64,000 bases of DNA from Cytophagales bacterium (GTDB lineage Bacteria > Bacteroidota > Bacteroidia > Cytophagales > Cyclobacteriaceae): the NCBI GenBank assembly GCA_017303795.1, contig JAFLBR010000004.1:1-64000 (forward strand). The letters are read 5' to 3'. The notes under the pieces are model-generated. The model saw only the letters and a list, made by a program, of their open reading frames with translations, was not told the origin of the DNA and searched no databases. The position numbers and the translations under genes are program-made. Positions within the stretch are counted from its first letter, which is position 1; every line of letters starts with the position of its first letter. This document shows positions 9,592 through 63,742 of this stretch, piece by piece.

Positions 9592-9623
9592 CCCTCTCTC
9601 CCGATAGCTATCGGGAGAGAGGG
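9592..9623. repeat. Perfect 32-bp palindrome before rng
   Basis: The 16 bases at 9592-9607 (CCCTCTCTCCCGATAG) are exactly complementary in inverted order to 9608-9623. The palindrome is followed by GGGCCGGGGTGAGG-like sequence that is familiar as part of short dispersed repeats in Bacteroidota genomes. It lies in the 79-base gap between the COX24-like gene and rng. As RNA it would form a very stable hairpin that could end the upstream transcript, protect its 3' end, or affect rng translation 27 bases further on. Confidence 0.75.
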
Positions 9624-28366: not shown

Positions 28367-29077
28367 ATGCATGCCGATTTAAAAGATGTTTTGTTTCTTG
28401 ATATTGAAACCGTTCGGGTGGTTGATCAGTATGCCAACCTGAACGAGCGACTTAAAACCCAATGGGCACGTAAAGCAAATTTCTTTAAGCGCGAAGAAGG
28501 CCAAACCGATGCCGATTTATTTCAAGATAGGGCGGGCATCTATGCCGAGTTTGGAAAAATTATTGTGATTGGCATTGGCAAATACACCGAGCAGAATGGC
28601 GTGCTGGGTTTACGCACGCGCTACTTTGCCGATCATGACGAAAAGAAATTACTTTCAGAGTTTGGAGATACGTTAGAGAAGTTGGGCCCGGCAACAAAGT
28701 TGTGCGCACATAATGGTAAAGAGTTCGACTTTCCATACATCTGCCGCAGAGCGTTGGTGAACGGTTTACCCATTCCTGGTGTTTTAAATGTGTCGGGCAA
28801 AAAACCGTGGGAAGTTAACCACCTTGACACCATGGAAATGTGGAAGTTTGGTGATTATAAACACTATACTTCGCTCGATCTGCTTGCCGCGATTTTTGAC
28901 GTTCCTACCAGCAAAGGTGTAATGGATGGCTCTATGGTAAGTGAAGTTTATCACCAGCAAGGCGACCTTAATAAAATTGCCGAATACTGCGTGGGTGATG
29001 TGGTGGCCGTAGCCCAATTATATTTAAGAATGAAGGGGCTGCCGATTATAGATTCAGGTTTAATAGTGAATACTTAA
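28367..29077 (+). CDS. 3'-5' exonuclease of the PolB-exonuclease-like family
   Basis: A DnaQ-like exonuclease of 236 residues. Exo I is FLDIETV (Asp12, Glu14), Exo II is KLCAHNGKEFDFPYICRRAL, and Exo III is EYCVGDVVAVAQLY, with the aspartate in place. The central part, KPWEVNHLDTMEMWKFGDY, is typical of the family PF10108 (predicted polymerase-B-like exonucleases). It probably trims DNA or RNA 3' ends. The last bases, including the TAA stop at 29075-29077, lie within the left inverted repeat of the GxxExxY cassette, so the C-terminus may have been set by that insertion. Confidence 0.9.
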   Translation: MHADLKDVLFLDIETVRVVDQYANLNERLKTQWARKANFFKREEGQTDADLFQDRAGIYAEFGKIIVIGIGKYTEQNGVLGLRTRYFADHDEKKLLSEFGDTLEKLGPATKLCAHNGKEFDFPYICRRALVNGLPIPGVLNVSGKKPWEVNHLDTMEMWKFGDYKHYTSLDLLAAIFDVPTSKGVMDGSMVSEVYHQQGDLNKIAEYCVGDVVAVAQLYLRMKGLPIIDSGLIVNT

Positions 29078-29107
29078 CCACTGAGCAACACAGAGAATGC
29101 CACAGAG
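29074..29107 (+). repeat. Left inverted repeat of the GxxExxY cassette
   Basis: Begins TTAACCACTGAGCAACACAG. Compared with the reverse complement of the right arm it differs at 7 of 34 positions. It has a purine-rich GAG/CACAGAG character seen in many short dispersed repeats in Bacteroidota. Confidence 0.75.
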
Positions 29108-29485
29108 ATGGAAGAGAGTTACTTAACAGAAAAAATAATCGGCTGTAGTATTAAAGTTCATAAAGCTCTTGGCCCTGGTTTGTTAGAGTCTGTTTATCAA
29201 TCATGCCTTTATTACGAATTAAACAAGAGTGGTTTGCTGGTAGAAAAAGAAAAAGCCCTTCCGGTAATTTATGAAGAAGTTAAGTTAGAGTGTGGCTATA
29301 GGATCGACCTGTTAATTGAGAAAAAAATTATTATTGAAGTTAAATCTGTTGACGCGCTTTCTGATATTCACCTGGCGCAGGTGTTAACTTATCTTAAACT
29401 TTCCAACAACAGATTTGGATTACTGATTAATTTTAATGTTTTAAAACTTAAAGACGGACTAAAGCGAGTTGTAAACGGATATTAA
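29108..29485 (+). CDS. GxxExxY protein
   Basis: A 125-residue member of the GxxExxY family, whose fold resembles PD-(D/E)XK nucleases. The name motif is at Gly24-Glu27-Tyr30 in GPGLLESVYQSCLYYEL. The putative metal site is Asp67 in GYRIDLLIEKK with Glu77-x-Lys79 in IIIEVKSVDAL. The end is the usual FGLLINFNVLKLKDGLKRVV. The family's function is not established; it is often found many times per genome between short repeats, as here. The frame is complete, and the gene lies exactly between two inverted repeats in front of rnr. Confidence 0.92.
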   Translation: MEESYLTEKIIGCSIKVHKALGPGLLESVYQSCLYYELNKSGLLVEKEKALPVIYEEVKLECGYRIDLLIEKKIIIEVKSVDALSDIHLAQVLTYLKLSNNRFGLLINFNVLKLKDGLKRVVNGY

Positions 29486-29486
29486 A

Positions 29487-29520
29487 CTCCGTGAAATTCT
29501 CCGTGTTTCTCCGTGGTAAA
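29487..29520 (-). repeat. Right inverted repeat of the GxxExxY cassette
   Basis: On the plus strand this is CTCCGTGAAATTCTCCGTGT and the following 14 bases; it contains three CTCCGTG units. The right end lies 3 bases before the rnr start codon, so it replaces whatever leader rnr had. Confidence 0.75.
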
Positions 29521-29523
29521 AAG

Positions 29524-31791
29524 ATGAGTAAAAAGAAATTTAAAGAAAAGAAAGCCAAGCGCGATAAGAAAGAGCGCAGTGGCTTGTATTCTTCCCTGAT
29601 TCAGTTTCTGGAAGAATCGAATGGAAAAGCCTACAGTGTAGAACAATTAATCCGGAAATTCGGACTGAAGAAAAAGTCGCTGATTGAAGATTTGTTTAAG
29701 CTACTGGACGTAATGGTAGATGATGGCACTGTTGAGCAGCTCAGCAACGGCCATTTCAAAAGCGCAAAAACTGCAGGTAAACTTACCGGAGTAGTTGATC
29801 ATGTGAATCCACGTTTTGCTTATGTAACTATAGTTGATGAAGAGCCGCCTGCCGGGCGCACGAGCAAGAAAGATATCTATATCAGATCCACCGATCTGGC
29901 CACAGCCATACATGGCGATACCGTTGAAGTAGAAGTTTTTAATAAACGTACAGGCGAAAATCCGGAAGGACGGGTAGCTTCCATTGTAAAACGTGGACGC
30001 AATCGGTTTGTGGGTCGGATTGAACTATCGCGCAACTTTGGGTTTGTGGTACCCGACTTCAAAAAAATCTATCAGGACTTTTTCATCTATCCTGAAAATC
30101 TGAAAGGCGCAACCCCTAACGATAAAGTATTGTTTGAAGTGGTGAAGTGGGCCGATCGTGATAAAAGTCCGGAAGCAAAAGTAGTTGAGATACTGGGTAA
30201 AACCGGTGAGAACGAAGCCGAGATTCATTCCATCATTGCTGAGTTTGAGTTGCCCTTCCGCTTCCCTGAAAACGTATTACAAGAATCTGAGAAAATAAGC
30301 GAAGGCATTACCGCAGAAGAAGTAAAAAAACGTTGGGACTTCCGTGACGTACTTACATTTACCATCGACCCGGAAGATGCCAAAGATTTTGATGATGCTA
30401 TCTCTTTTCGCACACTTGAAAATGGTAACTATGAAATTGGCGTACACATTGCTGATGTAACGCACTATGTACAACCTGGTACAGCATTAGATGAAGATGC
30501 GTTTGATCGTGCTACTTCGGTTTACCTGGTAGATCGTACTGTGCCTATGCTACCGGAGCGTTTATCGAATGCCTTGTGTTCGTTACGTCCGCATGAAGAC
30601 AAACTAACCTTTGCCGCTGTGTTTGAGATGGATGCAAAAGGGAAAATTTATAAAGAATGGTTTGGTCGCACAGTGATTCACTCCAATCATCGGTTTTCGT
30701 ATGAGCAGGCACAGGAAGTAATTGAAACCGGAGCCGGTACGTTTGCCGAAGAGTTAAAGATTTTGAATCAACTGCATCATATTCTCCGCAAGGAAAGATT
30801 TAAGAAGGGTGCGGTTAATTTTGAAACCACCGAAGTAAAATTCAAACTGGATGAAAAAGGAAAACCACTGGCAGTAGTCCCCAAGATTCGGAAAGATGCG
30901 CACAAACTGATTGAGGAGTTTATGTTGCTGGCTAATCGTGCGGTGGCTACGTATGTTTTCAAAATGAAAAAAGGCGAAGAAAAAAATACCTTTATTTATC
31001 GTACACACGATTTACCTAACGAGGAAAAAGTAGAAGACTTTGCCCGATTTGCCAAACAGTTTGGTCATCAGCTATCCATTGAGTCGGCCTCCATTTCCAA
31101 ATCGCTGAACAAGCTGATGGACACCATTGAGGGCAAGCCTGAACAAAATGTATTGCAATCGTTGGCCGTTCGCGCAATGGCTAAAGCAAAATATACTACC
31201 GATGCTAAAGGACACTTCGGGTTGGCGTTCGATCATTATACTCATTTTACTTCGCCCATTCGCAGGTATCCGGATATGATGGTTCACCGGTTGCTGCAAT
31301 ATTACCTTGATAAAGGAAAATCGGTGAACAAAAAACAATACGAAGAGAAATGTGTTCATTCCTCTGAAAGAGAGAAACGTGCAGCCGATGCAGAACGGGC
31401 TTCAATCAAATACAAGCAGGTGGAGTTTATGAGCCTGGCTGAAAACAAGGTGTTTGATGGTATTATAACCGGAGTTACTGATTTTGGAGTGTTTGTAGAA
31501 ATTACCGAAACCAAGTGCGAAGGCATGGTGCGCATGGCCGATATGAAAGATGACTTTTATGAGTTTGATGAAAAGAACTATCGTGTAATTGGCAGGCGCA
31601 GAAAAAAGATTTACAGGCTGGGCGATAAAGTACAGGTTCGCATTAAAAAGACAGATGTAGATAGAAGGATGATTGATTTAATGTTTGAAGAGGAGTTCAT
31701 TAACAGTAGCATCGCCCCAGTTAAAAAAGAAGAAGATGCGCTGTACTTTCCGGATTCGTTAGAGAACAGAAAGAAAAAGAAGAAAAGGTAA
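29524..31791 (+). CDS. rnr: Ribonuclease R
   Basis: RNase R is a processive 3'-5' exoribonuclease that degrades structured RNA. From the ATG at 29524 it has 755 residues. The upstream in-frame ATG at 29491 lies inside the cassette repeat and adds 11 atypical residues, so it is not used. Order of domains: basic N-terminus (SKKKFKEKKAKRDKKERSG), winged-helix part, cold-shock domains (TGVVDHVNPRFAYV; NRFVGRIELSRNFGFV), RNB catalytic domain with aspartates in TIDPEDAKDFDDAI (from residue 281), and a C-terminal S1 domain (FDGIITGVTDFGVFVEI) with a lysine-rich tail. The leader is supplied by the GxxExxY cassette. Confidence 0.96.
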   Translation: MSKKKFKEKKAKRDKKERSGLYSSLIQFLEESNGKAYSVEQLIRKFGLKKKSLIEDLFKLLDVMVDDGTVEQLSNGHFKSAKTAGKLTGVVDHVNPRFAYVTIVDEEPPAGRTSKKDIYIRSTDLATAIHGDTVEVEVFNKRTGENPEGRVASIVKRGRNRFVGRIELSRNFGFVVPDFKKIYQDFFIYPENLKGATPNDKVLFEVVKWADRDKSPEAKVVEILGKTGENEAEIHSIIAEFELPFRFPENVLQESEKISEGITAEEVKKRWDFRDVLTFTIDPEDAKDFDDAISFRTLENGNYEIGVHIADVTHYVQPGTALDEDAFDRATSVYLVDRTVPMLPERLSNALCSLRPHEDKLTFAAVFEMDAKGKIYKEWFGRTVIHSNHRFSYEQAQEVIETGAGTFAEELKILNQLHHILRKERFKKGAVNFETTEVKFKLDEKGKPLAVVPKIRKDAHKLIEEFMLLANRAVATYVFKMKKGEEKNTFIYRTHDLPNEEKVEDFARFAKQFGHQLSIESASISKSLNKLMDTIEGKPEQNVLQSLAVRAMAKAKYTTDAKGHFGLAFDHYTHFTSPIRRYPDMMVHRLLQYYLDKGKSVNKKQYEEKCVHSSEREKRAADAERASIKYKQVEFMSLAENKVFDGIITGVTDFGVFVEITETKCEGMVRMADMKDDFYEFDEKNYRVIGRRRKKIYRLGDKVQVRIKKTDVDRRMIDLMFEEEFINSSIAPVKKEEDALYFPDSLENRKKKKKR

Positions 31792-63653: not shown

Positions 63654-63742
63654 GCCAACGTTCGCATATAAAGCGTGCCGGCAGTCCAAATTAATAATTA
63701 ATCATCAAACTCTGCCTGCATGCTTTATATGCATTGTTAGGT
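63654..63742. repeat. attC-like palindrome between two small genes
   Basis: The arms 63654-63684 and 63712-63742 share a perfect 11-bp core (GCATATAAAGC / GCTTTATATGC) and an imperfect continuation (8 of 10 bases). On the outside they end with AAC and GTT boxes: ACCTAAC (RYYYAAC) at one end of the minus strand and GTTGGCA at the other. The loop is 27 nt. Size (about 89 bp), imperfect stem with extra bases, and box placement match integron attC recombination sites. No integrase gene is in this window. Confidence 0.65.

What the first reader, a model, noticed from the sequence alone, without database searches (positions are those of the whole stretch)
29074..29520. Single-gene GxxExxY unit bounded by inverted repeats that supply a neighbour's stop codon and the rnr leader
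The sequence shows two 34-base inverted repeats agreeing at 27 positions, directly against the ends of one gene. The left repeat contains the TAA of the exonuclease gene; the right repeat ends 3 bases before the rnr ATG. GxxExxY proteins are known to be numerous in Bacteroidota and to have a PD-(D/E)XK-like core, here Asp67, Glu77 and Lys79. I infer that this is a mobile or copy-prone unit whose nuclease-like protein may act on its own repeat ends. It inserted so precisely that both flanking genes stayed open.
Basis: partly seen in the sequence, partly recalled or inferred. Interest (0 to 1): 0.7.

Follow-up and report, generated by a model that had tools for sequence, protein, structure and literature searches.

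The report
Single-gene nuclease unit with inverted repeats
A small nuclease-like gene sits between two mirrored repeats in a bacterial operon, and the same gene-plus-repeats arrangement recurs around most relatives examined, with repeats that match the gene's own lineage, which points to an undescribed kind of one-gene mobile DNA unit.

Summary
In detail: 34-base arms (29074-29107 and 29487-29520) match at 27 of 34 positions; 0 of 5000 shuffles reach that score. The gene is GxxExxY (TIGR04256), a minimal PD-(D/E)XK nuclease.

It is a real unit. Of 30 exonuclease-rnr junctions examined, 3 hold it intact, 4 hold remnants, 15 have a gap of 57 bases or less without trace, 8 are otherwise. Of 107 GxxExxY genes, 93 have significant flanking inverted repeats, against 6 of 75 control genes. 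Arms are trains of words 8-10 bases apart in several 'dialects', and dialect follows the protein tree (two superclasses: 2 changes, shuffled mean 25). Two copies in unrelated flanks share the stretch from arm to arm. Gene-free hairpins of the same words exist.

Best reading: a REPtron-like one-gene mobile unit with a Cas4/RecB-like nuclease in place of a tyrosine transposase. That the nuclease moves it is inferred. I found no target duplication and no base-exact empty site. One relative has dozens of such hairpins without a matching gene. TIGR02436 genes show the same architecture, so a passenger role stays open.

The parts
29074..29107 (+). left arm: three CAC-N-GAG words at spacings 10 and 12; holds the exonuclease stop TAA and abuts the GxxExxY ATG
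   Evidence: sequence; arm pairing beyond 5000 shuffles
29108..29485 (+). GxxExxY gene, 125 aa, minimal PD-(D/E)XK nuclease (TIGR04256, PF13366)
   Evidence: TIGR04256 E 9e-45, PF13366 E 3e-43; model pLDDT 94; D67/E77/K79 in 107 of 107
29487..29520 (-). right arm: three CACGGAG words at spacings 10 and 12, mirrored; forms the leader just before rnr
   Evidence: sequence
28367..29077 (+). upstream neighbour: predicted 3'-5' exonuclease (PF10108), whose stop codon lies in the left arm
29524..31791 (+). downstream neighbour: rnr, ribonuclease R
   Evidence: TIGR02063 E 2e-231

Best explanation
A one-gene mobile unit running from arm to arm (29074-29520). Shown: it is a discrete insertion between exonuclease and rnr; its ends are paired arms made of words 8-10 bases apart in most cases (10 and 12 here); the same architecture recurs around most GxxExxY genes examined; and the arm words follow the protein lineage. 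Inferred: the Cas4/RecB-like nuclease recognises its own arm words, probably as single-stranded hairpins, cuts at the feet of the arms, and so lets the unit or a gene-free hairpin be copied into gaps between genes. The gene is expressed by read-through from the upstream gene. Units that lose the gene leave gene-free hairpins, which could be moved in trans.
For: Flanking inverted repeats in 93 of 107 genes vs 6 of 75 controls (Fisher 1e-28); 66 of 76 independent sites. Dialect follows protein tree: 8 dialects 18 changes vs shuffled mean 51.2 (minimum 45); two superclasses 2 vs 25.3 (minimum 14); on independent sites 18 vs 37.9 and 2 vs 19.1. Own-genome copies bear three dialects, so genome composition does not explain it. 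L124 and L149 share one 459-base block that begins at the left arm and ends a few bases past the right arm, in otherwise unrelated flanks. Empty and decayed sites. Arms of one element match each other better than arms of other elements of that dialect in 72 of 84. Active site 107 of 107. Upstream neighbour co-directional in 85 of 91 vs 48 of 70.
Against: No biochemical test. No target duplication and no base-exact empty site found. 14 of 107 genes lack significant arms; of five plasmid-collection loci read, Sphingomonas and Fusobacteria show no arms. G051 has 63 A-type pattern hits but its one GxxExxY gene is labelled D; G008 has two hits and no GxxExxY match. TIGR02436 genes show the same architecture with an unrelated protein. 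Many similar pairs are orthologues at one site, so movement is not frequent. dN/dS about 0.07 among three orthologues, dS saturated, may mean a host role.
Confidence: 0.55

Rival explanations
1. Passenger model: dispersed hairpins are made and moved by some other, more general activity. GxxExxY and four-helix-bundle genes are cargo caught between arms and kept because they help the host or the hairpin.
For: TIGR02436 genes have comparable periodic arms in 23 of 28 loci tested. G051 has dozens of A-type hairpins without a matching GxxExxY gene. Purifying selection at the rnr site.
Against: Passengers should not track the arm words, yet dialect follows the GxxExxY tree also on independent sites. 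The obvious other enzyme, RAYT, does not carry these arms in three G051 loci.
Confidence: 0.27
2. Free-standing homing endonuclease gene: the protein cuts an unoccupied site and repair copies the gene in; the arms are only its border.
For: PD-(D/E)XK homing enzymes exist (recalled; I-Bth0305I appears at E 0.5 in the Foldseek list). Empty and filled versions of a site coexist in the genus.
Against: Homing needs one conserved target; units sit in 76 different flank clusters, and the arms recur with the gene. It leaves gene-free hairpins unexplained.
Confidence: 0.08
3. RNA-level unit like the 23S rRNA intervening sequences: the arms pair in the mRNA and RNase III removes the gene from the transcript, so the insertion is tolerated.
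For: The arms are predicted to pair in the transcript of the unit. Units lie along the direction of transcription. IVS elements hold an ORF between terminal inverted repeats (PMC4990558, passages).
Against: No excess of G.U-compatible over A.C-type differences between arms: 154 vs 175, p 0.27; on independent sites 106 vs 124.
Confidence: 0.08
4. Chance or ordinary repeats around an ordinary gene.
For: 14 of 107 genes have no significant arms.
Against: 0 of 5000 shuffles; 93 of 107 vs 6 of 75; 66 of 76 independent sites.
Confidence: 0.02

Closest known systems
REPtrons / RAYT with REPs and REPINs (PMC3116915, PMC3733652: passages read)
   Same: One small enzyme gene flanked by inverted repeats, gene-free hairpin copies between genes, enzyme and repeat co-evolving, read-through expression proposed.
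   Different: The enzyme is a PD-(D/E)XK nuclease, not a HUH tyrosine transposase. Arms are trains of words, not compact palindromes with a GTAG foot; RAYT loci in these genomes carry other palindromes.
23S rRNA intervening sequence with S23 / four-helix ORF (PMC4990558: passages read)
   Same: Small element with one ORF between inverted repeats; origin and mobility unresolved.
   Different: Different protein; lies in rRNA; excised by RNase III. No RNA-pairing signature in the GxxExxY arms.
Cas4 / lambda-exonuclease-like PD-(D/E)XK nucleases
   Same: Fold and active-site order; best Foldseek matches are Cas4 (4r5q, 4ic1) and lambda exonuclease.
   Different: 125 aa core only. No match at E <= 0.001, no PDB sequence match, no CRISPR or phage neighbours in the window.
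MITEs and other non-autonomous palindromic elements
   Same: Gene-free hairpins of about 110 bases in G051.
   Different: No target duplication seen; mobilising enzyme not identified.

Membership tests
GxxExxY (TIGR04256 / PF13366) | profile score over curated cut-off | tested here: met
   151.7 bits vs 35; 147.5 bits vs 22
PD-(D/E)XK nuclease, Cas4/RecB-like | D...ExK active site and fold | tested here: met
   D67, E77, K79 107 of 107; Q91 105, Y95 103; fold matches Cas4 but E 2e-3 at best. The name QhxxY for the Q/Y pair is recalled.
PD-(D/E)XK nuclease, Cas4/RecB-like | nuclease activity | not testable with these tools
   needs purified protein
REPtron (RAYT + REP) | HUH / Y1 tyrosine transposase | tested here: not met
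   the protein matches TIGR04256 and PF13366, not PF01797
REPtron (RAYT + REP) | repeats on both sides of the gene plus gene-free hairpin copies | tested here: met
REPtron (RAYT + REP) | GTAG or CGTC foot on a 20-40-base palindrome | tested here: not met
   arms begin TTAACC or GTCTGAA and are word trains
MITE / DDE transposon end | target-site duplication | tested here: inconclusive
   none seen at L124/L149 ends; no base-exact empty site
IVS-like RNA element | selected pairing in the transcript (G.U over A.C) | tested here: not met
   154 vs 175, p 0.27
Homing endonuclease gene | single conserved target site | tested here: not met
   76 flank clusters among 107 genes

The most novel reading that the evidence does not exclude
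A new class of bacterial mobile elements in which a minimal Cas4/RecB-like PD-(D/E)XK nuclease, with no HUH, DDE or recombinase partner, recognises trains of words 8-10 bases apart as element ends. The word 'dialects' co-evolve with the nuclease, and gene-free hairpins spread as its non-autonomous satellites. A sister class uses four-helix-bundle proteins (TIGR02436).
Probability: 0.4. Interest if true: 0.88.

Novelty: new variant of a known kind. Interest (0 to 1): 0.7.

Why it matters
GxxExxY is found in genomes of several phyla, and I found no paper that gives it a role. This gives it an anatomy (gene plus matched arms), a testable substrate (its own arms, with other dialects as built-in controls) and a possible source for short repeats scattered between genes. 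If the nuclease moves the unit, transposition would have a new enzyme class. If not, something still unidentified moves both these units and the four-helix ones.

Tried and rejected
Chance repeats: rejected by shuffles and control genes. RAYT as mobiliser of the A-type hairpins: three G051 PF01797 loci hold only single stray CACRGAG words, no arms. RNA stem selection: no wobble bias. Base-exact empty site and target duplication: sought at L123, L095 and L107/L111 without success. Four genomes lack the L107 unit, but the gap cannot be aligned base by base; at L095 one relative holds a hairpin and another holds other DNA. Defence label: only weak PADLOC hits, best E 5e-4, PDC-M36A and Cas4 types. 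Phage origin: no match in the phage records; two relatives in viral contigs, inverted repeats visible but not shuffle-tested. Rfam, run on 7 loci: two sub-gathering microRNA hits, both to one plain hairpin, taken as chance. Compensatory changes between the window's arms and its orthologues: no clear case by eye.

Full report
WHAT IS THERE. The arms are real: 29074-29107 and 29487-29520, 27 of 34 positions, directly against the ends of a 125-aa GxxExxY gene. Their alignment score of 33 compares with a shuffle mean of 15.6 and a maximum of 29 in 5000 shuffles. Each arm is three copies of a CAC-N-GAG word at spacings 10 and 12. The left arm holds the exonuclease stop codon; the right arm ends three bases before the rnr ATG.

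SAME SITE IN RELATIVES. The exonuclease was found in 47 of 58 genomes searched; I examined the 30 loci returned. Intact gene: 3 (G000, G020, G027). Remnants: 4 (G018 keeps residues 82-125 at 91% identity and both arms; G032, G013 and G024 keep shorter tails and arm pieces, judged by eye). No trace with a gap of 57 bases or less: 15. The other 8 have longer gaps, other ORFs or no adjacent rnr. A named Cyclobacteriaceae genome (L077) also holds the unit here. So this is an inserted unit, shared by several species and decaying in some. Among the three intact orthologues dN/dS is about 0.07, with dS saturated. A second unit of this genome (L107) is absent from the same junction in the four relatives that I read there (G001, G005, G011, G012), present in G013, and reduced to one arm in G024.

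THE FAMILY. TIGR04256 is found in 43 of 58 genomes, up to 8 matches per genome, some with stops or fragmentary. I took the 30 loci returned, 60 further places chosen among the intact, higher-scoring ones (not all places), and 27 loci from named genomes of several phyla. This gave 121 hits in 117 loci, 112 full length; 3 with short flanks and identical copies were dropped, leaving 107. Flanking inverted repeats: 93 of 107 at p<=0.05, 85 at p<=0.01. Ordinary genes by the same test: 6 of 75 at p<=0.05. Merging loci that share flanks leaves 76 sites, 66 significant.

DIALECTS. Arms are trains of words, mostly 8-10 bases apart: CAC-R-GAG, CGC-N-R-AG, CACATAG, CAC-A-AAG; and a second superclass CAGGATT, TATGATT, CAC-R-GAT, CACGAAT. 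84 of 107 genes could be labelled; 23 were left out; three labels were set by hand. On the protein tree the 8 dialects need 18 changes (shuffled mean 51.2, minimum 45 of 2000), the two superclasses 2 (mean 25.3, minimum 14). With one row per independent site: 18 vs 37.9 and 2 vs 19.1 (n=60). The tree is a quick one with few columns. The three copies in this genome bear three dialects, so genome composition does not explain it. Two flank clusters held mixed dialects, one of them with L149; I did not resolve why.

UNIT ENDS. L124 (G027) and L149 (this genome, another contig) have flanks that do not match each other, and their best local alignment is one 459-base block from AACCACATAG to four bases past GTGGTT. 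Other pairs in that call did not end so cleanly. In 9 of 57 measurable loci, not all independent, the arm lends the upstream gene its stop codon (my count). Arms of one element match each other better than they match arms of other elements of that dialect in 72 of 84.

GENE-FREE HAIRPINS. Two A-type hairpins lie elsewhere in this genome. G009 has a gene-free hairpin in the intergenic spot where G013 and G018 have a GxxExxY unit and G024 a broken one. G051 has 63 A-type pattern hits, backwards control 0. I fetched 20 places; 18 had both arms in the form sought. There the variable outer base pairs in 18 of 18 (shuffled mean 10.8; 1 of 5000 reaches it) and spacer bases in 20 of 36 (mean 11.3; 16 of 5000). 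G051's one GxxExxY gene is labelled D, and G008 has two hits and no GxxExxY match: both count against a strict need for a cognate gene. The exact D arm end occurs in 8 of 58 genomes. Five of these have a gene labelled D (G009, G011, G012, G034, G050). G036 has one in the D clade without a label. G033 has an unfetched gene beside the arms. G021 has a decayed copy by eye.

CONTEXT. The upstream neighbour is co-directional in 85 of 91, baseline 48 of 70 (p 5e-5); both neighbours in 66 of 78 vs 36 of 70 (p 2e-5); downstream alone 71 of 84 vs 50 of 70 (p 0.07). On independent sites: 58 of 63 (p 0.001), both 40 of 51 (p 0.003), downstream alone not significant (p 0.4). In five records of the plasmid collection that I read, the gene lies between fabD and fabG (Sphingomonas), radA and an FAD protein gene (Bacteroides), and adenine deaminase and a guanylyltransferase gene (Bernardetia); clear arms of CAC-R-GAG type are seen in Bacteroides and Bernardetia, none in Sphingomonas and Fusobacteria. 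With little room for a promoter of its own, read-through expression is the natural inference.

PROTEIN. The model has pLDDT 94. The best Foldseek matches are Cas4 and lambda exonuclease, none at E<=0.001; no PDB sequence match up to E 1. D67, E77, K79, E27, Y30, N108 and F109 are in 107 of 107; Q91 in 105; Y95 in 103. I read this as a minimal Cas4/RecB-like nuclease core (class name recalled).

MECHANISM. Unit, ends, dialect coupling and insertion are shown. That the nuclease cuts its own arms, and that hairpins move in trans, is inferred. The RNA alternative lacks its signature: 154 G.U-compatible vs 175 A.C-type differences, p 0.27. The passenger alternative stays open because TIGR02436 genes have comparable periodic arms in 23 of 28 loci tested.

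LITERATURE. Searched in the open PMC library only: GxxExxY, 2 papers, both in passing (passages); PF13366/PDDEXK_3/TIGR04256, 1 paper (listing only); six arm sequences, 0; two broader searches, 0 and 1 unrelated. IVS and REP/RAYT papers came from two searches and were read as passages. Most subscription papers and all preprints are outside this library, so novelty is provisional.

Noticed in passing
L286-L315 (TIGR02436 loci of 24 genomes searched): Four-helix-bundle genes (TIGR02436) are also flanked by periodic inverted repeats with other words: 23 of 28 loci tested at p<=0.05. A second, unrelated single-gene family with the same architecture.
   Followed up: partly
L234-L253 (G051): A family of gene-free hairpins of about 110 bases with a 9-base rhythm ending in GAG and paired variable bases. 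What moves them is unknown.
   Followed up: partly
L254-L266 (G012): Single D-type arms (GTCTGAATCAGGATT...) sit inside longer composite intergenic islands with other short repeats.
   Followed up: no
L008 930-1570, minus strand: At the exonuclease-rnr junction G009 holds two small ORFs instead, which look like a RelE/ParE-type toxin-antitoxin pair (identity recalled, not searched); L014 and L017 have gaps of similar length.
   Followed up: no
L123 downstream flank: The D-type unit in G009 is followed by a gene that looks like a type I modification subunit (by eye, recalled).
   Followed up: no
9592-9623: A perfect 32-base palindrome, CCCTCTCTCCCGATAGCTATCGGGAGAGAGGG.
   Followed up: no
63664-63732: A hairpin with 21-base arms, 90% complementary, 27 bases apart.
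   Followed up: no
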